The position numbers and the translations under genes were made by a program. A DNA stretch of 61,983 nt, taken from NCBI GenBank assembly GCA_016280445.1, contig JAEEGS010000077.1, forward strand, positions 1 through 61,983, given 5' to 3'. Source of the stretch: Bacteroidaceae bacterium (GTDB taxonomy: Bacteria; Bacteroidota; Bacteroidia; Bacteroidales; Bacteroidaceae). This document shows positions 3,588 through 60,376 of this stretch, piece by piece (the stretch's first letter is position 1; the number at the start of each line of letters is the position of its first letter). A model generated the notes under the pieces. That model made no database searches. It was not told the origin of the DNA and worked only from the letters and a program-made list of their open reading frames with translations.

Positions 3588-3628
3588 TTGCAAAGGGTGA
3601 ACCTATATGAAGATAGGCTCACCCTTTA

Positions 3629-3919
3629 TAAAAGCCGGGAGGAGATGTGATGAAACTCCGACGTGATAAGATTTGAGTATTTACCGTCCTTTGTAATCCA
3701 CCGACTCTATGGTTTCCAGAGGCCGAACCTCCATGTTCAGAGACATGGCGACTTCTGGGTTGTGGCCCGCCATTAAACGGTAAAATCATCTCGGTTTCAA
3801 TGTATAATTTGATGAGTATCCCGATCGATCCTGTACCCCGGCTATATGTATAAAATCAGACGATTCCTTCCTCTTTTCAGGGGTTCTTCTCTCTCGAAGT
3901 TGACCGTCTTCTTTCTTTT
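3629..3919 (-). ncRNA. Structured non-coding RNA, rod-like (6S-like candidate)
   Basis: No frame is open here. On the minus strand a perfect promoter ends at about 3926, and the transcript would run about 290 bases toward tRNA-Ser. Long-range pairs fold it into a rod. The outer stem is AGCCGGG (3837-3843) with CCCGGCT (about 3632-3638). Next is TGAAACCGA (3791-3799) with TCGGAGTTTCA (3652-3662). Then TTTACCGT (3777-3784) with ACGGTAAA (3680-3687). At the tip are two mutually exclusive hairpins: ATGGCG/CGCCAT (3745-3773) and CCATGT/ACATGG (3731-3748). A long double-stranded rod with its own housekeeping promoter fits 6S RNA. RNase P, tmRNA and SRP RNA hallmarks were not found. The family assignment is inference. 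Confidence 0.55.
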
Positions 3920-6762: not shown

Positions 6763-8370
6763 TCACTCCCACTCGATGGTTGCTGGCGGTTTGGACGATA
6801 CATCGTAACAAACACGGTTGACACCCTTGACGTTGCGGATGATTTGGTTGCTCACCTCGGCCAAGAATTCGTATGGGAGTTTTGCCCAGTCGGCCGTCAT
6901 TGCATCGGCAGAAGTGACAGCACGGAGAGCCACAGGATTCTCGTAGGTGCGCTCATCGCCCATCACACCGACACTCTTCACGTCGGAGAGGAGGATGGCA
7001 CCGGCTTGCCAAATCTGGTCGTAAAGAGATACTTCGATTTCACCATCCTTCATGTCGGCTGGCACACCGGCTGCAAGCACCTTGCGAGCCTCTTCGCCTG
7101 AGAGTTTCACTTTCCAGTTGCGAAGGCCACGGATGAAGATATCATCGGCATCCTGCAACACACGCACCTTCTCTGGCGTGATGTCGCCAAGAATACGAAC
7201 AGCCAAACCAGGTCCCGGGAACGGATGGCGCGTGATGAGGTGTTCTGGCATCTGAAGTTGGCGACCCACACGGCGCACCTCGTCCTTGAAGAGCCACTTC
7301 AACGGCTCGCATAGTTTCAGGCCCATCTTTTCAGGCAGGCCACCCACATTGTGGTGGGACTTGATGACCTTGCCCGTAATATTCAGCGATTCGATGCGGT
7401 CGGGATAGATAGTGCCCTGAGCAAGCCACTTCGCACCCTCAATCTTCTTGGCCTCGGCTTCGAACACGTCGATGAAGCCAGCACCGATAATCTTGCGCTT
7501 CTTCTCTGGTTCAGACACACCTGCCAGTTCCGTGTAGAACTTCTGCGAAGCATCGACACCCACCACATTGAGGCCGAGACACTCATAGTCGCGGAGCACA
7601 TCGGTGAACTCGTTCTTGCGAAGGAGTCCGTTGTTGACGAAGATGCATGTGAGGTTCTTGCCGATGGCGCGGTTGAGCAACACGGCTGCCACCGAAGAAT
7701 CCACACCACCCGAAAGGCCGAGAATCACCTTGTCATCGCCAACCTGTTCACGCAACTCCGCCACCGTCTGGTCGACGAACGAGGCAGGTGACCAATCCTG
7801 TTTGCCACCACAGATGTCCACCACAAAGTTCTTCAGCAACAAGGTGCCGTCGATGCTGTGGAACACCTCGGGATGATACTGTACACCCCAAATCTTTTCG
7901 TCGTTGGCAGCGTAGGCAGCATACTTGACGGTGGCTGTCGAGGCGATGCAACGGAAACCCTCAGGCAGTTTCGTAATGGTGTCGCCGTGCGACATCCATA
8001 CCTGGCTGTTTTCGGCAAAGCCCTTCAGAAGCGGATTGCCCGCTTCCATATATTCAAGATTGGCACGTCCATACTCGCGAGTGCCCTCCGGCTCCACTTT
8101 ACCACCAAACGTGTGTGCCATCAACTGGGCACCGTAGCAGATGCCGAGAATTGGATACTTGCCACGAATCTGAGCAAAGTCAAGTTTGAAAGCGCGCTCC
8201 TCATAAACGCTATAAGGAGAGCCCGACAGAATCACGCCAATCACATCGGGGTCATTCTGCGGGAACTTGTTGTAAGGCATGATTTCGCAGAACATGTTCA
8301 ACTCACGCACACGACGGCCAATCAGCTGCGTGGTCTGCGAACCAAAGTCCAAAATGATAATTTTCTGCAT
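6763..8370 (-). CDS. guaA: GMP synthase (glutamine-hydrolysing)
   Basis: The protein of 535 residues makes GMP from XMP, ATP and glutamine. The N-terminal class I amidotransferase has the nucleophile Cys78 in GICYGAQ and the His/Glu of [10 protein letters not shown]. The ATP pyrophosphatase domain has the P-loop [12 protein letters not shown]. The C-terminal dimerisation domain ends in the invariant [11 protein letters not shown]. The start [12 protein letters not shown] at 8370 is chosen because it gives the family N-terminus and lies 36 bases after a perfect -7 element; the frame runs open farther upstream through the promoter but that is not coding. Confidence 0.97.
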
Positions 8371-8405
8371 ATATATATAAATATGTGTAAATTCTCTTGA
8401 GTGAT

Positions 8406-8436
8406 GCAAAGGTAGTGATTTTTTTTCGAAACTCAA
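8406..8436 (-). promoter_or_regulatory. guaA promoter
   Basis: On the minus strand: TTG (8434-8436), 19 bases, TACCTTTGC (8406-8414). It diverges from the promoter of repeat element A. Confidence 0.75.
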
Positions 8437-8464
8437 CTTTTTACTCCCATAAAAAAGAAAACTC

Positions 8465-8495
8465 TTGACAAAGCCGAAAAAAAATCGTAACTTTG
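8465..8495 (+). promoter_or_regulatory. Promoter of repeat element A
   Basis: TTG (8465-8467), 20 bases, TAACTTTG (8488-8495). It is nearly identical to the promoter at 45939-45969: both contain CTTGACAAAG, CGAAAAAAA and TTTGTACT. No gene follows, only the 21-bp array, so it likely makes a small RNA. Confidence 0.7.
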
Positions 8496-8567
8496 TACTC
8501 TGAAACAGAAGAACCTTTCCCTGTTGAACAAGGCCGAAAGCCCCCCTTCCCGTTTCAACCCACATCC

Positions 8568-8651
8568 ATCAATTCGTTCTACGAATTCATCAATTCCTTG
8601 TACTAATCGATCAATTCCTTCTTTAAATCGATCAATTAGTACAAGGAATTT
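8568..8651 (+). repeat. Element A: four 21-bp tandem units forming a hairpin
   Basis: Four units of exactly 21 bases start at 8568, 8589, 8610 and 8631; each begins ATCAATT. Most continue with CCTT and end in AATCG. AATTCCTTGTACTAAT (8592-8607) is the perfect complement of ATTAGTACAAGGAATT (8635-8650). Inside, after one C-A mismatch, GATC pairs with GATC. The same design with different outer-stem bases is seen at 46007-46090. The rest of 8371-8800 holds three promoters (guaA, this element, the SDR gene) and no gene. Confidence 0.8.
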
Positions 8652-9654: not shown

Positions 9655-12075
9655 ATGAAACACAGATTTTGGCTGATAAGGTCATTTTCAGCCCGTCTCA
9701 GCCTCTGGGTTATAGTGACAGCCACTATCATTTTGTTGGTAACCGCCATGGTGATGAACATAGTGGTGCGTGAGGGCATTCTCCGTGAGGAGGAACTGAG
9801 AGCCAGCTATGCGCTGGAAAATGCCGAGCAACACATTAACGGTGTGTTCATTGCGGTGGAAACAGCCGTCAAGAACCACGCCAACGAAATCAGGCAAAAT
9901 CTCAATGCTCCCCACGAGGAGATGTATCGTATTACCCGTGAAATGCTGGAGACCAACCCCATGATTGTCGGTTCTGCCATCGCTTTTGAACCCAATTATT
10001 ATCCAGATCAAGGGCGTTGGTTCTCTCCCTATAGTTATCGCGACGTGACATCCGCGGAAGAACAAGGCACGAAAACGGACTATGTCATCCATGAGAAACA
10101 GTTGGGCAACAGTTCCTATGACTATCATAACAAGGAGTGGTATCAAACACCAAGAAACCTGAAGCAAGGCTATTGGAGTGAGCCATATTGTGACACAGGT
10201 GGCGGCGAAATAACGATGATCACCTACAGTTATCCGTTGCAGGACGAGCAAGGCAACGTCTTTGCTGTGGTGACAGCCGATGTGTCGCTGGAGTGGTTGT
10301 CGCAACTGATGGATTCGTTAAAGTATTACGACCAGTCTTACAGTTTTGTGCTGTCCCGTAACGGAACCTTCATCACCCACCCCAGAACGGAAGTGGTGTT
10401 GAATCAAACCATCTTTTCGTTCGCCGAATCGGTGGGGGACTCTGCTATGGCAAAGATTGGAGAGAAAATGGTGGCTGGAAAAATGGACATGGAGCCCATG
10501 AGGTCGCCAAGATTGGGAAAGGCATTCATCTTTTTCAAGCCGGTGAAGCACACGGGATGGTCAATGGCCATGGTCTGCGGTACCGAAGTTTTCTTCAGAA
10601 CTGCCACTCGGGCAGGAATCCTTGTTGGGACGCTCATCCTGCTGATGCTGTTGATTCTCACTTTCATCATGCACAAAGGCGTGAAGCGGCTTACACTTCC
10701 ATTAGCTCTTTTCACACAAGCGGTGGATGAAGTAGCACATGGCAACCTGCAAGCCACTCTTCCCCCAATACACACGAAAGACGAGATGCTACGATTGCGC
10801 AACTCTTTCTGTACCATGCAGAAGTCGTTGACTCAGCAGATGGAGGAACTGAAACGCGTGAACGAGCAAAAGGGGCGCATTGAGAGTGAACTGAAAATAG
10901 CAAGCAACATTCAGCGGGCCATGCTTCCCAAAACGTTCCCGCCCTATCCTGACCGCGACGACATCGACATCTATGGACAACTGACTCCAGCCAAGGAGGT
11001 GGGCGGTGACCTTTTCGACTTTTATATCCATGACGAAAAACTCTTCTTCTGTATCGGTGACGTTTCAGGCAAAGGTGTACCTGCATCGTTGGTCATGGCG
11101 GTAATGCGTTCCTTGTTCCGCACGCTTTCCGCACATGAGCACCACCCCGAACGCATCATTTCACAGATGAACGACCGCATGGCTGAGAACAACGAAGAAA
11201 GCATGTTCGTCACGCTCTTTATCGGTGTACTGGATTTGCCAACAGGGAAACTGCGTTACTGCAACGCGGGGCACAACGCTCCCCTGCTCCTCACAGAGAA
11301 GGACAATAAGAAACAAATGACATTCCTGCCTTGTGACAACAACATCCCCGTTGGGGTGATAGATGGGTGGAAATTCTCACTCCAAGAGATGACTGTGGAC
11401 ACCAACACCACGATATTCCTTTACACGGACGGATTGACTGAGGCTGAAAATGTGGAGCATCAACTGTTTGGCGAGGAAAGAATGAAAGACGCCATCGTCT
11501 TCGCCACTTCTCAGGAAATCGTTGACCGCATGACTGACGCTGTCCACGCTTTCACCGGCGATGCAGAACAGAGTGATGACTTGACCATGCTCGCCATCCG
11601 ATATTCCCAAGGCCCTAACACGGTGTGCTTCCATCAGAAAATCACGTTGAGCAACGATGTGAAACAAGTGCCTCTTCTCTCGGAATTTGTCGACAATGTG
11701 TGTGAATCATTAGGTTTCGATGCTGCCACCACCATGCAAATGAACCTTGCCCTTGAAGAGGCTGTGGTCAATGTAATGAACTATGCTTATCCTCCAGAAA
11801 CTCATGGAGACATCTACATTATGGCTGAAGCCGACGAAAAGCGCTTGAAGTTCACCATCAGCGATAATGGCATGCCGTTCGACCCTACTGCTCACCATTC
11901 TGTGGACACCACGCTCTCGGCAGAGGAACGCCCCATCGGAGGACTCGGCATCCACCTCATCACACAACTCATGGACAGCGTCAACTATGAACGCAAGAAC
12001 AACAAGAATGTCCTTACGCTTCGCAAAAAGTTACCTCAGATGAGTCACAATGATGAGTTAGAAATTAGAAGTTAA
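9655..12075 (+). CDS. Membrane sensor with PP2C (SpoIIE/RsbU) phosphatase fused to RsbW-like kinase
   Basis: The 806-residue protein combines parts that are usually separate. Transmembrane helices at about 15-38 and 317-342 flank a periplasmic Cache-type sensor. A HAMP segment (about 343-395) and coiled coil lead to a SpoIIE/RsbU PP2C domain (about 440-650; EVGGDLFDF, DVSGKGVPASL, YTDGLTEAEN, SDDLTMLAIRY). The C-terminus (about 665-800) is an RsbW/SpoIIAB-like GHKL ATPase with N-box LALEEAVVNVMNYAYP and G-box GGLGIHLI. Thus phosphatase and serine kinase for a STAS protein sit in one chain. The STAS protein is encoded 31 bases downstream. The output target is not in the window. Confidence 0.9.
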   Translation: MKHRFWLIRSFSARLSLWVIVTATIILLVTAMVMNIVVREGILREEELRASYALENAEQHINGVFIAVETAVKNHANEIRQNLNAPHEEMYRITREMLETNPMIVGSAIAFEPNYYPDQGRWFSPYSYRDVTSAEEQGTKTDYVIHEKQLGNSSYDYHNKEWYQTPRNLKQGYWSEPYCDTGGGEITMITYSYPLQDEQGNVFAVVTADVSLEWLSQLMDSLKYYDQSYSFVLSRNGTFITHPRTEVVLNQTIFSFAESVGDSAMAKIGEKMVAGKMDMEPMRSPRLGKAFIFFKPVKHTGWSMAMVCGTEVFFRTATRAGILVGTLILLMLLILTFIMHKGVKRLTLPLALFTQAVDEVAHGNLQATLPPIHTKDEMLRLRNSFCTMQKSLTQQMEELKRVNEQKGRIESELKIASNIQRAMLPKTFPPYPDRDDIDIYGQLTPAKEVGGDLFDFYIHDEKLFFCIGDVSGKGVPASLVMAVMRSLFRTLSAHEHHPERIISQMNDRMAENNEESMFVTLFIGVLDLPTGKLRYCNAGHNAPLLLTEKDNKKQMTFLPCDNNIPVGVIDGWKFSLQEMTVDTNTTIFLYTDGLTEAENVEHQLFGEERMKDAIVFATSQEIVDRMTDAVHAFTGDAEQSDDLTMLAIRYSQGPNTVCFHQKITLSNDVKQVPLLSEFVDNVCESLGFDAATTMQMNLALEEAVVNVMNYAYPPETHGDIYIMAEADEKRLKFTISDNGMPFDPTAHHSVDTTLSAEERPIGGLGIHLITQLMDSVNYERKNNKNVLTLRKKLPQMSHNDELEIRS

Positions 12076-18782: not shown

Positions 18783-18807
18783 TTCAATTTTTCAATTCTT
18801 CAACTTT
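18780..18807 (-). repeat. Octamer repeat tract at the tsaD-rsmE junction
   Basis: On the minus strand: GTTGAAGA, ATTGAAAA, ATTGAAGT, then GATGAAAG. The period is 8 bases. The tract encodes the last residues of TsaD (LKN), supplies its TGA stop, and leads straight into the rsmE ATG. Confidence 0.7.
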
Positions 18808-19814
18808 TCCACTCTTGCATACGCAGGCAAGTCAATCGAGGCAAAGTCCTTGTCGAGATACTTGAAGTAGCCCGTAATGCCAATCATGGCCGCATTGTCA
18901 GTCGTATAGGAGAACTTTGGAATGAAAATCTTCCATTTGTAACGCTTCGCATGGTCGCGGAATGCGTTGCGAAGTCCGTTGTTGGCACTCACACCACCAG
19001 CCACAGCCACCTGTTTGATGCCCGTGTCTTTCACAGCCTTGCGGAGTTTCTTCATCAGGATGTCCACGATGGTCTTCTCCAATGAGGCCGCCAAATCTTC
19101 CTTGTGATGCTCGATGAAGTCAGGGTCGTCTTTGAGCCAATCTCTCAGATGATAGAGGAACGAGGTCTTCAAGCCCGAGAAACTGTAGTCATATCCAGCA
19201 ATGTCTGGCTTCGAGAACTCAAATGCTGCCGGATTGCCCTGACGCGCCAACTTGTCGATGATAGGTCCACCTGGATAGCCAAGCCCCATCACCTTCGAGC
19301 ATTTGTCAATCGCCTCACCTGCCGCATCGTCGATGGTTTGACCCAATATCTCCATATCCTTATACGAGTTCACCTTCACAATCTGGCTGTTGCCGCCGCT
19401 GACGAGCAGGCACAGATACGGGAAAGTCGGCTGGTCGTTGTCGTCCTCCGACTCTCGGATAAAGTGTGCCAGCACATGTCCTTGCAAGTGGTTCACGTCA
19501 ATCATCGGAATGCCCAGACTTCTTGCAAAGCCTTTGGCAAAACTCACACCCACCAACAGGCTTCCCATCAAGCCAGGTCCTCTCGTGAAGGCAACGGCAT
19601 TGAGGTCTTCCTTCGTGATGCCTGCCCGTTTGATGGCAGCATCCACCACAGGCACGATGTTCTGCTGATGTGCACGGCTGGCCAATTCTGGCACCACACC
19701 ACCATACTCTTCATGCACAGCCTGCGAGGCAGTCACATTGCTCAGCAAGATGCCATCTTTCAGCACCGCTGCACTCGTATCATCGCACGAACTTTCTATT
19801 GCAAGTATATACAT
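18792..19814 (-). CDS. tsaD: tRNA t6A37 threonylcarbamoyltransferase subunit
   Basis: A 340-residue member of the Kae1/TsaD family, which transfers the threonylcarbamoyl group to A37 of ANN-reading tRNAs. Motifs include ESSCDDTSAAVL at the N-terminus, the metal-binding DVNHLQGHVLAHF, VSGGNSQIV and AVAGGVSANNGLR. It is 3 bases from map and 9 from rsmE in a minus-strand operon, a set of translation genes. Confidence 0.96.
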   Translation of the reverse strand: MYILAIESSCDDTSAAVLKDGILLSNVTASQAVHEEYGGVVPELASRAHQQNIVPVVDAAIKRAGITKEDLNAVAFTRGPGLMGSLLVGVSFAKGFARSLGIPMIDVNHLQGHVLAHFIRESEDDNDQPTFPYLCLLVSGGNSQIVKVNSYKDMEILGQTIDDAAGEAIDKCSKVMGLGYPGGPIIDKLARQGNPAAFEFSKPDIAGYDYSFSGLKTSFLYHLRDWLKDDPDFIEHHKEDLAASLEKTIVDILMKKLRKAVKDTGIKQVAVAGGVSANNGLRNAFRDHAKRYKWKIFIPKFSYTTDNAAMIGITGYFKYLDKDFASIDLPAYARVEKLKN

Positions 19815-21429: not shown

Positions 21430-21472
21430 GTGTGTCATAGTCATCGCGACGGGCACGAAACAACCACCTATA

Positions 21473-21564
21473 CAGCAACGACGTTGCCGTAATTACCTCA
21501 ACGAGGTTACCGTAATTACGTTAGTGGCGTAAACGTAATTACGGCTACGACGCTCCTGTTGGAG
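21473..21564. repeat. Array of four 23-bp tandem units (GTAATTAC core)
   Basis: Units start at 21473, 21496, 21519 and 21542. The first three end in CGTAATTA. GTAATTAC occurs at 21489, 21512 and 21535, exactly 23 bases apart. Between the cores lie small dyads such as GCAACGACGTTGC and ACCTCAACGAGGT. The fourth unit keeps only the first half. A weak extra unit (10 of 23 matches) may precede it at 21450. There is no gene in 21377-21642. Confidence 0.75.
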
Positions 21565-27455: not shown

Positions 27456-27467
27456 AAACTTCTATTT

Positions 27468-27523
27468 TTAAAGTCTTCAACTCTTCCATTTTTCAATCCT
27501 TCTATCCTTCAATTCTTTAACCC
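27468..27523 (-). repeat. Octamer repeat tract between the DUF2520-type gene and kdsC
   Basis: On the minus strand about seven units with period 8: GTTAAAGA, ATTGAAGG, ATAGAAGG, ATTGAAAA, ATGGAAGA, GTTGAAGA, CTTTAAAA. The TGA stop of the upstream gene (27509-27511) lies within the second unit, and the encoded C-terminus is LKN, as in TsaD. Confidence 0.7.
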
Positions 27524-28282
27524 TTCCTCGTGTATGCTTTTACTGAGTAGTTTGTAAATCTTTTGACAGTTGGGCGTGTCAGAAAGGAGTTGCAGGTGCT
27601 TGTCCATCACATTGGTGTCCCAACGTACCGCAGGACCCGTCTGTGCCTCTTGGGGAGAGAGCGTATGGAGTTTGCCTGCCGTCTCGTCAATCAAGGGGAG
27701 CATCACACTGAACGGGATATTACCGTGTTCTTTCAGCAAATCGGCACTTAACGCAAAGCAATGATTTGCGAAATTGCAACAGAAGACAGCAGCCAAATGG
27801 AGGTACTTGCGGTTCTCGCTATCGAGTTCATAGACGGTGTCGGAGATGGTCAAAGCGAGTTTCTTCAACAGCTGAGCATCATCCTCGTTTGTTGCTTCAA
27901 TAAAACAAGGTATTATACAGAAGTCCACTTCCTTATTTTTAGAAAAAGTCTGCATCGGATAGAATACGCCTCGCCGTTCAAAGGGCAATTCATCCATCGA
28001 CATGCTGCCTGCCGTATGAACGAACAACTGTCCTTCGCGACCGACTTGCAGAGATGATGCCACAGATGGAAGCGCGGCATCTTTCACCGCCACCACAAAC
28101 ACGTCAGCCTCTCTCACCACGTCTTCTGTCTGAGTTGTGTAAGGGCATTTCAGAACGGAAGCCAAGGTCTTGGCCGATTCCTCCGTTCGGCTATACACCT
28201 GCACGATTTCATGTCCTGCACGAAACAGCGCCTTACCCAAATTGGTGGCAAGATTGCCCGCTCCTATCAAAACCACTTTCAT
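27509..28282 (-). CDS. Rossmann-fold oxidoreductase-like protein (DUF2520 type)
   Basis: A 257-residue protein from the ATG at 28282 (MKVVLIGAGNLATNLGKAL); an ATG four codons upstream is possible. The N-terminal NAD(P)-binding motif is GAGNLATNLG. The C-terminal helical DUF2520 region includes YLHLAAVFCCNFANHCFALS and QTGPAVRWDTNVMDKHLQLL. The family is related to pyrroline-5-carboxylate reductase and F420-dependent oxidoreductases; the substrate is unknown. It is transcribed with the nitroreductase upstream and kdsC downstream. Confidence 0.85.
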   Translation of the reverse strand: MKVVLIGAGNLATNLGKALFRAGHEIVQVYSRTEESAKTLASVLKCPYTTQTEDVVREADVFVVAVKDAALPSVASSLQVGREGQLFVHTAGSMSMDELPFERRGVFYPMQTFSKNKEVDFCIIPCFIEATNEDDAQLLKKLALTISDTVYELDSENRKYLHLAAVFCCNFANHCFALSADLLKEHGNIPFSVMLPLIDETAGKLHTLSPQEAQTGPAVRWDTNVMDKHLQLLSDTPNCQKIYKLLSKSIHEEGLKN

Positions 28283-28290
28283 AAACGGCT

Positions 28291-28340
28291 CCAATCATTC
28301 AACTCTTCAACACTTCAATCCTTCAATTTTTCAATCCTCC
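28291..28340 (-). repeat. Octamer repeat tract between nitroreductase and DUF2520-type gene
   Basis: Six units with period 8 on the minus strand: ATTGAAAA, ATTGAAGG, ATTGAAGT, GTTGAAGA, GTTGAATG, ATTGGAGC. The nitroreductase TGA stop (28331-28333) is formed at the start of the tract. Confidence 0.75.
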
Positions 28341-29075: not shown

Positions 29076-30119
29076 ATGGCAAAAAAGAAGAAGTATATAT
29101 GGATTTGGGTGCTGCTGTGCATCGTCGTGATGGCGGGTGCTGGTGCGTGGTGGGTGTACAGGAGCGGCTTCCAATTGAGTGAACCCACCTATATTTACAT
29201 TGACGCAGACGACACGGTGGACTCCATCGCCATGAAGGTGGAAAAGCAGACAAACCCCGAAAGCATGCGGGTGTTCCACCTCTATGCAGGGCTGCTGAAA
29301 CTGGAAGAGCGCATCCGAACGGGACGCTATGAAGTGACGGCCGAACTGACCATGCTGAACTTCATCCGCGACATCCGCAACCACAACGAGAAACCAATCA
29401 TGCTGGTGGTTCCGTCGGTCAGAACCTTGGATTTGATGGCCGGACGAATGGGTCATCAGTTGATGGTTGACTCGGCCAGCATCGTGGAATATCTGAACGA
29501 CGAAGCCAACATCAAGGCATTGGGTTACACGAAGGAATCGCTGCCCGGAATGTTCATTCCCAACACCTACGAGGTGTACTGGGACATGAGCGTTGAGCAA
29601 CTCATGGAGCGGATGGCAAAGGAGTATAAGCGGTTCTGGAATGCTGAACGTCTCGGCAAACTGAAAGAAGTGAGCGAATATGCTGGCGAGGAGATGACGA
29701 AGGAGAAGGTCATCACGCTGGCTTCCATCGTGGACAGCGAGACGGCCAACAACGGTGAGAAGCCGATGATTGCCGCCCTCTACCTGAACAGGCTTCGCAA
29801 GAAGATGGCGCTGCAAAGCGACCCGACGGTCATCTATGCTGTGGGCGACTTCTCCATCCGCAGAGTGCTGAACGAGCATCTGGCAGTGGAATCGCCCTAC
29901 AACACCTACCGCAACGCGGGTCTTCCTCCCGGCCCCATCCGCGTGCCCAGCATTGCTGGCATCGATGCCGTGTTGAATCACGACCGAAACGAATATATTT
30001 ACATGTGCGCCAAGGAAGACTTCTCGGGCACACACAACTATGCCGTATCTTACGGCGAACACCAACGGAACGCCGCTCGCTACATTCGTGCACTGAATGA
30101 GAGAGGAATACGCCGTTAA
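29076..30119 (+). CDS. mltG: Endolytic peptidoglycan transglycosylase MltG
   Basis: A 347-residue YceG-like protein. Basic N-terminus MAKKKKYIW, one transmembrane helix (about 8-26), a LysM-like subdomain (about 40-110) and the catalytic YceG domain. Hallmarks are LASIVDSETANNGEKPMIAALYLNRL (catalytic Glu in SETA), MALQSDPTVIYA, SPYNTYRNAGLPPGPI and the end FSGTHNYAVSYGEHQRNAARY. It cleaves nascent glycan strands in the inner membrane and so sets their length. Confidence 0.95.
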   Translation: MAKKKKYIWIWVLLCIVVMAGAGAWWVYRSGFQLSEPTYIYIDADDTVDSIAMKVEKQTNPESMRVFHLYAGLLKLEERIRTGRYEVTAELTMLNFIRDIRNHNEKPIMLVVPSVRTLDLMAGRMGHQLMVDSASIVEYLNDEANIKALGYTKESLPGMFIPNTYEVYWDMSVEQLMERMAKEYKRFWNAERLGKLKEVSEYAGEEMTKEKVITLASIVDSETANNGEKPMIAALYLNRLRKKMALQSDPTVIYAVGDFSIRRVLNEHLAVESPYNTYRNAGLPPGPIRVPSIAGIDAVLNHDRNEYIYMCAKEDFSGTHNYAVSYGEHQRNAARYIRALNERGIRR

Positions 30120-30132
30120 CGTATTTTCGCCA

Positions 30133-30230
30133 CCGACAGTAACGAACTTACGGTACTGACACTACCGAAAAGACGGCAACGACAGTAGAGAAATCGTTCA
30201 TAAGTTATGAATAATTATCCGTAAGTTATG
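30133..30230. repeat. Array of three 23-bp units followed by an AT-rich inverted repeat
   Basis: Units start at 30133, 30156 and 30179. Column 3-6 is GACA in all three, followed by TA and then GA at fixed positions. After them GTTCATAA (30196-30203) pairs with TTATGAAC (about 30225-30232), with TAAGTTATGAA repeated at a 21-base interval. The array lies between mltG and the GH43 gene; no gene fits here. The words TTACGGTA and TTACCGTAA are shared with the array at 21473. Confidence 0.6.
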
Positions 30231-30274
30231 AACAACGCAGAAGAAGATTTGTTTAGATTATTAGATTAGTTTAT

Positions 30275-45912: not shown

Positions 45913-45938
45913 TTTAAGGCTCAAAAAGAGATAAACAC

Positions 45939-45969
45939 TTGACAAAGTCGAAAAAAATTCGTACCTTTG
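45939..45969 (+). promoter_or_regulatory. Promoter of repeat element B
   Basis: TTG (45939-45941), 20 bases, TACCTTTG (45962-45969). It matches the element A promoter at 8465-8495 nearly base for base. No gene follows for 500 bases. Confidence 0.7.
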
Positions 45970-46006
45970 TACTGGAAATTTGGAAATGAACATCCAAATT
46001 CTCTTC

Positions 46007-46090
46007 ATAAATTCCTTCCATGAATTGATCAATTCCTTCTACCAATCGATCAATTCCTTCTATGAATTGATCAATTCCAAGAAGGAATCG
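46007..46090 (+). repeat. Element B: four 21-bp tandem units forming a hairpin
   Basis: Units start at 46007, 46028, 46049 and 46070, exactly 21 bases each; most begin ATCAATTCC. GATCAATTC pairs with GAATTGATC around a seven-base loop. Outside come the same C-A mismatch and AAT/ATT pair as in element A, then ATTCCTTCT against AGAAGGAAT. Base changes in the outer stem relative to element A are matched on both sides, which suggests the fold is kept. CACTTACAC follows both arrays. Confidence 0.8.
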
Positions 46091-46098
46091 AGTTTATC

Positions 46099-46236
46099 AC
46101 TTACACTAACCCAGTCGAGGATGTTCCAGTGAGTCAGTGGAGGAACTTACACTAACCCAGTCGAGCATATTACAGTCATTGGGCAGAGCATGTTACACTA
46201 AGCCTGCAACACATATTACACAAGCCTGCGAGAGAA
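46099..46236. repeat. Array of six 23-bp tandem units following element B
   Basis: Units start at 46099, 46122, 46145, 46168, 46191 and 46214. The pattern is T/A-n-TTACACTA near the start and CAGTCGAG or CTGCGAG-like near the end. Units 1 and 3 are 22 of 23 identical; others diverge. The region 45913-46510 holds element B, this array, an AT-rich stretch and the mutA promoter; no gene is seen. Confidence 0.75.
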
Positions 46237-46390
46237 CCCGTCACAAGGGTTCTCCTACGCCATACAAGCTAGGTGAACGTTTAACAAAAAATATATGGAG
46301 AAAAAGAATGAGTTGTGGAATATGTTTTTTGCAAAAGTGCTGCATGTTTTGTTGCAAACAAACATTTTCCAGGAAAAAGTCTTCTTTCCT

Positions 46391-57153: not shown

Positions 57154-57338
57154 GATTGGTGTCGTTTATGGTTTTCTGGTTGCAAATATACAACATATTT
57201 TTCATAAACAAATGTTTTTGAGGAAAAAATTGTGGTTGGCGGGATTTGGGGCGATGAAAGGGCTGGTGTGGGCTCACAGACGTAGCCTCCGCTGGCGTAC
57301 ACCCACTACCTCCTCTGGAGCACACTCACAGCCTCTGA

Positions 57339-57430
57339 ATCGATGTCGTCGAGGTCGACAAATCGACGTCGTCGACATCGACTGACCAACGTCGACGAGG
57401 TCGGCAAACCGATGTCGACGATGTCGGTTT
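57339..57430. repeat. Array of four 23-bp tandem units rich in GTCGAC words
   Basis: Units start at 57339, 57362, 57385 and 57408, each 23 bases. They begin ATCGA or ACC(A/G)A and contain GTCGTCGA or GTCGACGA followed by GGTCG or ATCG. Every unit has local dyads (GTCGAC, TCGACGTCGTCGA). No unit is identical to another. Confidence 0.75.
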
Positions 57431-57435
57431 TGAGG

Positions 57436-57573
57436 CAGTGGAAGGGAGGAATGGGAGGCTGTGGCGTTGAGGTAACGGAGGATGTGGCGTTAGGGTAACG
57501 GAGGATGTGGCGTTGAGATAACGGAGGATGTGACGCAAGAGCACTGGAGGTGATGGCACAAAGGGCTGCGGAT
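57436..57573. repeat. Array of four to six 23-bp tandem units (GTGGCGTTGAGGTAACGG type)
   Basis: Four clear units start at 57459, 57482, 57505 and 57528: (A/C)TGTGGCGTT(G/A)(A/G)GGTAACGGAGG, split here for length. The one before (57436) matches 16 of 23 positions; the one after (57551) matches weakly. It directly follows the array at 57339. The whole region 57154-57805 holds these two arrays, the hairpin at 57581, the antitoxin promoter and the gyrA promoter, but no gene. Confidence 0.8.
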
Positions 57574-57723: not shown

Positions 57724-57754
57724 TTGGTAGTGTCGGAAGGAATCGCTAACTTTG
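57724..57754 (+). promoter_or_regulatory. gyrA promoter
   Basis: TTG (57724-57726), 20 bases, TAACTTTG (57747-57754). The leader is about 45 bases. Confidence 0.8.
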
Positions 57755-57805: not shown

Positions 57806-60376
57806 ATGGAAGATTTAGACAGAATCATTAAAGTTGAGATTAACGAAACGATGAAGAAGAGCTACATCGACTACTCGATGTCGGTGATTGTGGCTCGTGC
57901 GCTTCCTGAAGTTCGTGACGGTTTCAAGCCCGTGCACCGTCGTATTCTCTACTCAATGGACAAGCACGGCAACACGTCGGACAAGCCAACTGTGAAGTGC
58001 GCCCGTATCGTGGGTGATGTGCTGGGTCACTTGCACCCACACGGCGACTCGTCGGTGTATGGCGCGCTGGTGCGTCTGGCTCAGCCTTGGGCGATGCGCT
58101 ACACGCTGGTGGATGGACAGGGTAACTTCGGCTCTGTGGATGGTGATGGTGCTGCGGCCATGCGTTACACGGAGGCTCGCCTCAGCAAGATTGGTGAGGC
58201 CATGCTTCAAGATATTGACAAGGAAACGGTGGACATGGTGGACAACTTCGACAACTCGGAGAAGGAACCGACCGTGCTGCCTACCCGCATCCCGAACCTC
58301 CTGGTGAACGGTGCAACGGGTATCGCTGTGGGTATGGCGACCAACATTCCTACGCACAATCTGAGCGAGGTGATTGATGGTTGCGTGGCTTACATCGACA
58401 ATCCTGAACTGACGAGCACGGACCTGATGCAGTACATCAAGGGTCCTGACTTCCCTACCGGCGGCATCATCTGCGGTGTGGACGGCATCAGGGACGCTTA
58501 CGAGACTGGTCGCGGTCGCATCGTGGTTCGTTCGAAGACTGAAATTGAAACTGAGGGTACACACGACAAGATTATCGTGAGCGAGATACCTTACAACGTG
58601 AACAAGTCGGAGCTGATCAAGAAGATTGCTGCGTTGGTGAACGAGAAGAAGATTGACGGCATCAGCAACGTGAACGACGAATCGGACCGCGAGGGTATGC
58701 GCATCGTCATCGACATCAAGCGTGAAGCCAACGCCAACGTGGTGCGCAACAAACTCTTCAAACTGACCGACCTGCAGAGCACCTTCGCCGTGAACTGCAT
58801 CGCCATCGCTGACCGCCGTCCGAAGCAACTCTCGCTGAAGGACTGCATCCGCTACTTTGTGAACCATCGCCACGATGTGGTGATTCGCCGCACAAAGTTT
58901 GACAAGCAGAAAGCCGAGGAGCGTGCACACTTGCTCGAAGCACTCATCATCGCCAGCGACAACATCGACGAAGTGGTACAAATCATCAAGTCGTCGGCAA
59001 CTCCACAGGAGGCTCAGACACGACTGATGGAACGTTTCGGATTCGATGAACCACAGGCGAAGTACGTGGTCGACATGCGACTCAGCCAGCTGACAGGTCT
59101 GCAGCAGGAAAAACTGCATGCTGAGTATAATGACCTGATGAAGTTGATTGAATACCTCCAGCAGATTCTGGATGACCCGGAACTGTGCAAGAAGGTGATG
59201 AAGGACGAACTTCTCGAGGTGAAGGAGAAGTGGGGCGACGAGCGCAAGACCGAAATCGACGTGACAGCCAGCGAGAACTTCGACCCAGAGCAGTTCTATG
59301 CAAAGGAAGAGGTTGTTGTGACAGTCAGCCACCTCGGCTACATCAAGCGCACCACCCTCACCGAGTTCCGCACGCAGGCCCGTGGTGGCATCGGTGTGAA
59401 AGGCGGTACGGCACGCGACAAGGACTTCATCGAGTTCATCTATCCGGCCAACACGCACAACACCATGATGTTCTTCACACAGAAGGGTCGCTGCTTCTGG
59501 ATGAAGGTGTACAACATCCCAGAAGGTTCACGCACCGACAAGGGTCGTGCCATCCAGAACCTGCTGAACATCGACAGCGACGACAAGGTGACGGCATTCA
59601 TCTGCATCGAGAACATCAACGATGAAGAATGGGTGAACAGCCACAACCTCATCTTCTGCACCCGCCAGGGCATCATCAAGAAGACGGCATTTGTCAACTA
59701 CTCACGTCCACGCAACAATGGTATCATCGCCATCAATCTGAACGAGGGCGACGAAGTGGTTGAAGTGCTCCTCACCAGCGGCAAGGACGAGATTCTGATT
59801 GCCAACCGCAACGGTCGCGCCATCCGCTTCAACGAAAGCACAGTACGCAACATGGGACGTGGTGCAACTGGTGTGAAGGCCATGCGTCTCGACGAGGATG
59901 AGGAAGACCAGATTGTCGGCATGATTGCACTCACGAAACCAGAGGGTTACGATGAGAACGCAGAAGATAATGAAACCGACAACGAAGAATTCTATCCAGA
60001 CATGCCAACCGTGCTTGTGCTCTCGGAGAAGGGTGTCGGCAAGCGCTCCACCATTGGCGAGTATCGCATCACGAACCGCAACGGTAAGGGTGTCAAGACC
60101 ATCAACATCACCGAGAAGACCGGCAAACTGGTGGCCATCAAGAAGGTGATGGAGGATGAGGACATCATGATTATCAACAAGAGCGGCGTGACAATTCGTC
60201 TGGCTGTCAGCGACATCAAGAAGTCTTCACGCAACACGCAAGGTGTGAAACTCATCGACATTCAGAAGCGCAACGACGTCATCAGTTCTGTCTGCGTGGT
60301 GGAACACTCGGAAGAGCCTGATGACCTGAATGAAGAAGGTGCAGAGACTCCTGAAGCAAGCAACACGCAAGAATAA
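57806..60376 (+). CDS. gyrA: DNA gyrase subunit A
   Basis: An 856-residue protein. The winged-helix breakage-reunion domain has the catalytic Tyr in [12 protein letters not shown], and the C-terminal part (about 500-820) holds the beta-pinwheel blades with the GyrA-box-like [11 protein letters not shown] and [11 protein letters not shown]. An acidic tail ends it. In the quinolone region ([14 protein letters not shown]) the position equal to E. coli Ser83 is Ser82, and that equal to Asp87 is Gly86. It introduces negative supercoils with GyrB. Confidence 0.97.

What the first reader, a model, noticed from the sequence alone, without database searches (positions are those of the whole stretch)
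57339..57573. Intergenic tandem arrays with a strict 23-bp (or 21-bp) period but array-specific sequence
At five places in 62 kb the gaps between genes hold short arrays: 8568 (4 x 21), 21473 (4 x 23), 30133 (3 x 23), 46007 (4 x 21) followed by 46099 (6 x 23), and 57339 (4 x 23) followed by 57436 (4-6 x 23). The period is exact in each, with no indels, although the units diverge by point changes. Except for the two 21-bp sister arrays, unit sequence is not shared between arrays; what is shared is period, copy number and richness in small dyads. Twice, two different families sit head to tail. Period 23 is not a multiple of three, so this is not coding. I know no named element with this form. 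Ideas (inference): binding platform for a multimeric protein, a helical-phase spacer, a product of templated copying, or small RNAs with repeated hairpins.
Basis: partly seen in the sequence, partly recalled or inferred. Interest (0 to 1): 0.82.

Follow-up and report, generated by a model that had tools for sequence, protein, structure and literature searches.

The report
Fixed-number palindrome arrays between genes
Gaps between genes in this rumen bacterium hold several families of short DNA arrays, usually with a set number of mirror-like sites spaced 21 to 24 bases apart; most look like landing pads for proteins, and one family looks like a small-RNA gene.

Summary
The arrays are real and not chance, but not one-off: each belongs to a family dispersed through the genome. 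The array at 57339 belongs to family F1: constant inverted 17-bp arms (TTYNGAGGYWGTGGAAG) enclose adjacent quasi-palindromes on a 23-bp phase. Multi-unit cores have exactly three units in 18 of 21 own and 31 of 33 places in a close relative (places partly found with 3-4 unit queries); the window copy has four. The same arms enclose an unrelated 24-bp core (F5), so the design is modular. Family F2 has four sites in 17 of 19 relative copies, with palindrome positions little changed between species (2 of 168; 12 of 87 in centres and spacers). F1 shows no RNA-type covariation and no inward promoters; I read F1, F5 and F2 as multi-site protein-binding platforms that spread or convert between intergenic sites (inference; no protein found). 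The 46004 array differs: all 20 copies tested have a promoter box before it and 15 a 5' stem longer than chance, so it is probably a small-RNA gene family. BrickBuilt, REP/RAYT and parS were tested and not met. New variant of a known kind.

The parts
   Evidence: TRF period 23, 2.3 copies, score 62; left inner arm at 57323-57339 with 3 mismatches to the arm pattern
57341..57426 (.). F1 core: four quasi-palindromes (CGANNTCNNNGANNTCG, one mismatch allowed) exactly 23 bp apart; centre triplets GTC, GTC, GAC, GAC
   Evidence: dyad symmetry p=0.003 against column-permuted units
57428..57444 (+). right inner arm TTTTGAGGCAGTGGAAG, exact match to the family arm pattern
57432..57573 (+). right arm: 23-bp directional units (GGAGGATGTGGCGTTGAGGTAAC), in phase with the core
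   Evidence: TRF and period scan; not a dyad, p=0.73
57183..57211 (-). Bacteroidetes-type promoter pattern pointing away from the element
   Evidence: pattern TTG-N17..21-TAnnTTTG; consensus recalled
57724..57754 (+). Bacteroidetes-type promoter pattern before gyrA, pointing away from the element
   Evidence: sequence
57806..60376 (+). gyrA (DNA gyrase subunit A), neighbour
   Evidence: Pfam PF00521, PF03989
45939..45969 (+). promoter pattern of the F3 unit, pointing into the array
45977..46000 (+). 5' stem-loop of the F3 unit (AATTTGGA / TCCAAATT); stem sequence differs between copies, pairing often kept
46004..46078 (+). F3 core: 3.5 units of 21 bp (dyad about GAATTGATCAATTC)
46099..46220 (+). 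F3 arm: directional 23-bp units
8564..8637 (+). second F3 copy, with an inward promoter pattern ending about 8495; its 5' stem is no better than chance (6 bp, p=0.11)
21471..21543 (.). F4 array (23 bp, CCGTAATTACGG dyads); dispersed family
30117..30193 (.). weak 23-bp array; the stretch after it (about 30195-30237) is a dispersed repeat

Best explanation
The array at 57284-57573 is one copy of a dispersed intergenic DNA element: two inverted, outward-facing arms around a run of adjacent quasi-palindromes on a 23-bp phase, usually three (here four). Shown by sequence: the family, the peak at three units, the phase, the modular core, concerted change of whole cores between two related genomes, no inward promoters, and the lack of RNA-type covariation. 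Inferred: each quasi-palindrome is a site for a dimer of a DNA-binding protein, neighbouring dimers stack cooperatively about two helical turns apart to form a complex of set size, and the arms extend or bound it. F5 and F2 would be equivalent platforms for other specificities. The elements spread, or are converted, among intergenic sites that tolerate them, in co-directional gaps mostly nearer the upstream stop codon. The array at 46004 (F3) is a separate thing of like form: most likely a small-RNA gene with its own promoter, a 5' stem-loop and a tandem-dyad body.
For: Family and arms: 44 matching segments (both strands, about 20 F1 places) in the own genome; arm pattern 62 times in own, 100 in G013, 28 in G014, against 3, 3 and 4 for the control pattern in these genomes. 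Number: exactly 3 units in 18 of 21 own and 31 of 33 G013 multi-unit cores; in whole stretches of four own contigs (contigs chosen because they had hits) plus the window, 8 of 9. Modularity: same arms around F5 (CGGTSTGASTCASACCG, 24 bp, three units; L109, L121, L128, L156) and related cores (L235, L252, L255). Inverted order of centre triplets in 36 of 37 mixed cores of up to four units. Dyad symmetry (p up to 0.05) in 19 of 21 F1 cores, 4 of 4 F2, 2 of 2 F5, but 1 of 8 arm or unassigned 23-bp arrays. Not RNA: within-unit pairing 0.34 against 0.52 expected; no arm-arm covariation. F2: four sites in 17 of 19 G013 copies, five in 2; palindrome positions 2 of 168 changed, centres and spacers 12 of 87 (p=7e-5). 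Location: none of 28 F1/F5/F2 arrays has an inward promoter pattern within 250 bp, 11 have an outward one; in co-directional gaps 11 of 11 lie nearer the upstream stop, 12 of 14 if three with doubtful gene calls are added. F3 as RNA: 20 of 20 tested copies have TAnnTTTG upstream, 19 with TTG at -33 spacing; 5' stem of 8 bp or more in 11 of 20 copies against 8% of cross-copy pairs; stem longer than shuffles at p up to 0.05 in 15 of 20.
Against: No cognate protein was found; 20 genes next to arrays checked by Pfam show no shared regulator. The rigid layout could be inherited from a master copy that spread, not kept by function. Ascertainment: most G013 and some own F1 places, and the G013 F2 places, were found with 3- or 4-unit queries and capped match lists, so shorter cores are under-counted; 7 own and 8 G013 one-unit matches were seen, some probably chance. 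Cores do change number between orthologues (3 to 2, 3 to 1, 3 to 3+3). 23 bp is not a whole number of B-DNA turns. The F2 selection test uses 3 orthologue pairs aligned without gaps; its flank rate (50 of 240) is inflated by stretches that no longer align. Two of 21 F1 cores fail the dyad test, and own L152 breaks the triplet order. Five of 20 F3 copies have no stem longer than chance, and some F3 copies are orthologues of each other.
Confidence: 0.48

Rival explanations
1. F1/F5 are purely selfish non-autonomous mobile elements (MITE-like): the inverted arms and palindromes are recognition sites of an unknown transposase or recombinase, with no host function.
For: Dispersion, inverted arms, genome-specific copy number (arm pattern 100 in G013, 62 in own, 11 in G002), presence/absence between orthologous gaps (G013 has one at L134 where own L123 has other sequence; own has one at L120 and L160 where G013 has other sequence), copies at different loci 80-90% alike over up to about 170 bp, in-phase addition of a second trimer (L136).
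Against: No clean empty site or target duplication was seen in the orthologue alignments, and arms fade gradually. RAYT-type transposases do not track with copy number; other transposases were not tested. F2 has no conserved flanks beyond outer half-sites, only conserved sites. In 8 of the 11 orthologous F1 gaps compared both genomes have an element (gaps chosen for having F1 in at least one genome).
Confidence: 0.3
2. F1 is an RNA element: hairpin arrays carried in transcripts of neighbouring genes (terminator, stability element, sRNA).
For: Low predicted folding energy on both strands (no shuffle control); frequent position nearer stop codons; F3, of like form, does look transcribed.
Against: No inward promoter pattern; no copy-specific complementarity of arms or core, and fewer paired YR positions than chance; the window copy lies between two outward promoters.
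Confidence: 0.08
3. Neutral minisatellites made by replication slippage, with palindromes only aiding slippage.
For: Unit loss in exact steps of 23 bp between orthologues (L149/L139, L124/L135).
Against: Number peaks sharply at 3 (F1, F5) and 4 (F2) (with the ascertainment bias stated); units are dispersed families, not local inventions; palindromes little changed between species in 3 F2 pairs.
Confidence: 0.06
4. REP/BIME elements mobilised by RAYT (Y1 transposase).
For: Intergenic palindromes in tens of copies, often near stops, genome-specific sequence.
Against: PF01797 has no match in G002, G010, G011 and G013, which carry many copies, and only a sub-threshold match (21.8 bits) in own (the genomes are 85-99% complete).
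Confidence: 0.03

Closest known systems
BrickBuilt MITE of Porphyromonas gingivalis (PMC4596501; abstract, section 5 and part 1 of 2 of section 7 read)
   Same: 23-nt tandem repeat without spacers, 19 dispersed intergenic copies, same order of bacteria, flanking sequences with inverted ends
   Different: 1 to 22.8 repeats per copy, one unit family, non-repetitive leader and tail with IS5-like terminal repeats; here mostly three or four dyads, several unit families, arms that are themselves 23-bp arrays, and no such terminal repeats (3 of 35 trimers have a 2-mismatch match within 400 bp, about the background rate)
Phage lambda OR operator (recalled)
   Same: three adjacent ~17-bp palindromes with 6-7 bp spacers, 23-24 bp centre to centre, bound cooperatively by dimers
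   Different: one site per phage with promoters inside; here tens of copies per chromosome, no inward promoter pattern, plus inverted arms
Plasmid iterons (recalled)
   Same: a few tandem sites about two helical turns apart, fixed number, bound by an initiator
   Different: iterons are directional and sit at one origin; here dyads, dispersed
BOX elements of Streptococcus pneumoniae (recalled; PMC3049150 seen in search listing only)
   Same: modular dispersed intergenic repeats with constant ends and tandem middle
   Different: unit lengths and number; no fixed 23-bp phase
REP/BIME/REPIN (PMC3733652, PMC3116915, PMC2817692 seen in search listing only)
   Same: intergenic palindromic repeats, high copy number
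   Different: no RAYT association here; fixed tandem phase and number
FopS paralogous sRNAs of Bacteroides thetaiotaomicron (PMC11697453; passages read)
   Same: multicopy sRNA family in Bacteroidaceae, compared with F3
   Different: the words tandem and stem-loop do not occur in that paper's main text; relation to F3 not tested by sequence

Membership tests
BrickBuilt MITE | 23-nt tandem repeats, intergenic, dispersed | tested here: met
BrickBuilt MITE | IS5-like terminal inverted repeats (GAGACCTTTGCA type) | tested here: not met
   9 matches in the window against 6.7 expected; 3 of 35 trimers have one within 400 bp, about background
BrickBuilt MITE | widely variable repeat number | tested here: not met
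   3 units in 18 of 21 own and 31 of 33 G013 multi-unit cores; one-unit matches 7 and 8
REP/BIME moved by RAYT | RAYT (Y1_Tnp) gene in genomes with many copies | tested here: not met
   none in G002, G010, G011, G013; sub-threshold in own; over the cut-off in G003 (29.9 bits, partial match in a 328-aa frame)
MITE in general | sharp ends and target site duplication at empty sites | tested here: inconclusive
   no clean empty site in the compared loci; arms fade gradually
chromosomal parS (for F2) | TGTTTCACGTGAAACA sites, few, origin-proximal (recalled) | tested here: not met
   only two parS-like sites (1 mismatch) in each of own and G013, 680 bp apart; F2 arrays are elsewhere, the nearest seen 3.3 kb away on G013:C58
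lambda-type operator | bound cooperatively by a dimeric repressor | not testable with these tools
   only the geometry was compared; lambda values recalled
Known Rfam RNA (for F3 and F1) | match to a covariance model at gathering score | tested here: not met
   window: 4 matches, none over the arrays; 12 loci: none
Small-RNA gene (F3) | own promoter | tested here: met
   TAnnTTTG in 20 of 20 tested copies, -33 TTG in 19 of 20; consensus recalled
Small-RNA gene (F3) | conserved secondary structure with covariation | tested here: met
   5' stem of 8 bp or more in 11 of 20 copies against 8.4% of cross-copy pairs; 5 of 20 no better than chance at p=0.05
Small-RNA gene (F3) | observed transcript | not testable with these tools
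   no RNA-seq on hand

The most novel reading that the evidence does not exclude
These genomes run several parallel sets of chromosomal binding platforms, each of set size (three or four stacked dimers on a 21-24 bp phase), for different DNA-binding proteins that organise the nucleoid or insulate genes. Cores are exchangeable cassettes inside constant arms, and the cassette specificity has been switched at most sites between two related species (GTC/GAC to CCC/GGG centre) by a drive-like in-phase replacement.
Probability: 0.18. Interest if true: 0.82.

Novelty: new variant of a known kind. Interest (0 to 1): 0.62.

Why it matters
Bacterial intergenic repeats are usually described by sequence. 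Here geometry (phase and number of sites) is shared while sequence differs between families and between related species. That makes a long-standing question, whether such repeats are selfish or bind host proteins, directly testable: a ~100-bp synthetic element with one to five units can be used as bait. It also gives a candidate family of tandem-dyad small RNAs with a constant promoter and body and a variable 5' stem-loop in rumen Bacteroidaceae.

Tried and rejected
REP/RAYT link: rejected. parS identity of F2: rejected. BrickBuilt terminal repeats: not found above background. Known Rfam family: none over the arrays. RNA covariation for F1: rejected. Global hairpin of F1 (unit 1 with unit 3, arm with arm): suggested by the order of centre triplets, but no copy-specific complementarity. 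Orientation preference of F1 gaps: none evident against background, not tested statistically. Recurrent neighbour gene or regulator: none in 20 proteins next to arrays; HU-family, MraZ and gyrA neighbours look incidental. Homology of F3 and F1 arms: only suggestive by eye (GGAGG... and ...TGAGTCA in both), not tested. Order of elements along the chromosome: not testable with 84 contigs. Literature: eight searches listed nothing closer than BrickBuilt for the arrays; only open-licence PMC papers were searched.

Full report
WHAT WAS CHECKED. Against dinucleotide shuffles four of five gaps stand far out (scores 22-47 against shuffle maxima of 10-12); the 30133 array is weak (11.9 in the gap alone against a maximum of 15.8; 14.9 with 20 more bases, 0 of 2000 shuffles). 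In the window, 8 segments with period 20-24 reach score 14; none does in 20 shuffles. In 438 kb of the own genome (window plus 20 stretches of four contigs, chosen because they had hits) intergenic arrays of period 6-100 fall at 23 bp (13), 21 (4; one probably coding), 24 (2), 46 (1), at 7-9 bp (11) and at 37-72 bp otherwise (4). In gyrA loci of relatives and other Bacteroidales (80 loci) 16 of 57 intergenic arrays have a period of 22-23 bp; the other large class is 7 bp (11). None of any period appears in five shuffles.

THE ELEMENT AT THE GIVEN COORDINATES (F1). The core is four units CGANNTCNNNGANNTCG, 23 bp apart. Right-arm units carry GAGGMTGTGG-type motifs every 23 bp, left-arm units the same type inverted, in phase with the core. 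The element lies between two promoter patterns that point away from it (gyrA on one side, a minus-strand one on the other).

A DISPERSED FAMILY. The window segment matches 44 stretches (both strands) of its own genome and 11 of 41 genomes searched, own included, all in one genus of 17. The arm pattern TTYNGAGGYWGTGGAAG (one mismatch) occurs 62 times in own, 100 in G013, 28 in G014, 20 in G003 and 11 in G002, with 3-4 matches of the control pattern in each of these.

NEAR-FIXED NUMBER. Among places with two or more units, 18 of 21 own and 31 of 33 G013 cores have exactly three; the rest are 2, 2 and 4 (own) and 2 and 6 (G013). One-unit matches number 7 and 8, some probably chance. Bias: many places were found with 3- or 4-unit queries and capped lists, which under-counts short cores but not long ones. 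In the stretches of C25, C48, C56 and C59 plus the window, 8 of 9 multi-unit cores have three.

MODULAR. Paired inverted arms also enclose a different core, CGGTSTGASTCASACCG on a 24-bp phase, again three units (L109, L121, L128, L156; one unit in L139), and related cores (L235, L252, L255). Centre triplets are ordered GTC before GAC, or CCC before GGG, in 36 of 37 mixed cores of up to four units; the exception is L152. Own units are mostly GTC/GAC (55 of 64, one spurious pair included) and G013 units CCC/GGG (90 of 107, two duplicate places included).

TURNOVER. Orthologous gaps in own and G013: both have an element in 8 of 11. Identical core (L122/L137; L155/L138 with a different right flank), point changes only (L151/L130), 3 to 2 units (L149/L139), 3 to 1 (L124/L135), all three centres changed together (L127/L142), four GNC units against three CCC units with matching left flank and arms (window/L129), and 3 to 3+3 units with the second trimer of the other type and, by eye, one more arm unit, in exact phase (L111/L136). 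L134 in G013 has an element where own has other sequence; L120 and L160 in own have one where G013 has other sequence. No clean empty site or target duplication was seen. The gaps were chosen for having F1 in at least one genome.

DNA RATHER THAN RNA FOR F1. Dyad symmetry beats column-permuted units (p up to 0.05) in 19 of 21 F1 cores, 4 of 4 F2, 2 of 2 F5 and 3 of 4 F3, but in 1 of 8 arm or unassigned 23-bp arrays. In 48 non-redundant trimers there is no copy-specific complementarity between arms or between units 1 and 3, and within-unit pairing of the variable YR steps is below chance (0.34 against 0.52). Of 28 F1/F5/F2 arrays none has an inward promoter pattern within 250 bp and 11 have outward ones. 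In co-directional gaps 11 of 11 arrays lie nearer the upstream stop than the downstream start; with three doubtful cases added, 12 of 14. REP elements are known to favour gene ends in a like way (recalled).

F2. TGTTACANNTGTAACA occurs as four sites, 23 bp apart, in 17 of 19 G013 copies and five in 2; own copies have 4, 4, 4 and 2 by the same criterion (about 3 by eye). In three orthologue pairs the 14 palindrome positions changed 2 times of 168, centres and spacers 12 of 87 (p=7e-5); flanks 50 of 240, inflated because the alignment has no gaps. This is the best evidence that the sites themselves are kept. F2 is not parS: two parS-like sites per genome lie 680 bp apart in one locus; one G013 F2 array is 3.3 kb away.

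F3, THE 46004 AND 8564 ARRAYS. Parts of window 45919-46277 match 15 further places in own (8564 among them) and 5 in G013, and no such place was listed in the eight other genomes of the genus searched. The alignment of the window and 18 fetched copies shows a conserved Bacteroidetes-type promoter before the core. In 20 of 20 tested copies (15 own, 5 G013; one own place left out) TAnnTTTG lies within 140 bp upstream of the core and in 19 a TTG sits at the -33 spacing; the two halves of a 5' stem differ between copies yet pair within a copy (8 bp or more in 11 of 20 against 8.4% of cross-copy pairs; better than shuffles at p up to 0.05 in 15, not in 5). Some of these copies are orthologues of each other. 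Some end in a hairpin plus T run (by eye). I read F3 as a small-RNA gene family. In G013 the gap orthologous to 46004 carries, by eye, another 21-bp array instead.

F4 AND THE REST. The 21471 array has about 14 places in each of own and G013, some weak. The stretch after 30193 is a repeat much amplified in G013 (83 matching segments, against 7 in own).

MECHANISM. Sites about two helical turns apart, in a near-fixed number and with nearly contiguous dyads, are what cooperative dimers need; lambda OR (three 17-bp operators, 23-24 bp apart) and plasmid iterons have this geometry (both recalled). That a protein binds is inferred. Spread or conversion between sites is shown by sequence; its machinery is unknown, and RAYT does not track with it.

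WHAT IT IS NOT. BrickBuilt is the nearest named element (abstract, section 5 and part 1 of section 7 of PMC4596501 read), but its terminal repeats and its variable number are not met. No Rfam family covers the arrays. Literature searches listed no description of such arrays beyond BrickBuilt; subscription papers were not searchable.

Noticed in passing
window 18783-18809, 27459-27526, 28292-28338: 8-bp tandem arrays (TTCAAYYC type) squeezed between or at the ends of genes; a different kind of array.
   Followed up: no
window 3627-3840 (-): 6S-like Bacteroidales-1 RNA (RF01693), 123.6 bits, next to a tRNA.
   Followed up: no
L298/L300 (G000:C55:30371 and 31051): Only two parS-like sites (one mismatch), 680 bp apart, in own and likewise in G013.
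   Followed up: partly
window 30195-30237; L207: A CATAAGTTATGAA-type repeat is much amplified in G013 and rare in own; in G013 a similar 21-bp array (by eye) sits where own has the F3 unit.
   Followed up: partly
L011-L090 intergenic regions: Arrays of 22-23 bp period also occur in gyrA loci of other Bacteroidales, with other sequences.
   Followed up: partly
window 8370-8565: The longest ORF of the GMP synthase gene may start too far upstream: the F3 promoter pattern ending about 8495 lies inside it.
   Followed up: no
L119:5064-5141 and L123 about 9950-10070: A further dyad array (CGTTATCAATTAATCGATAACGG); a similar motif, by eye, occurs where G013 has an F1 element.
   Followed up: no
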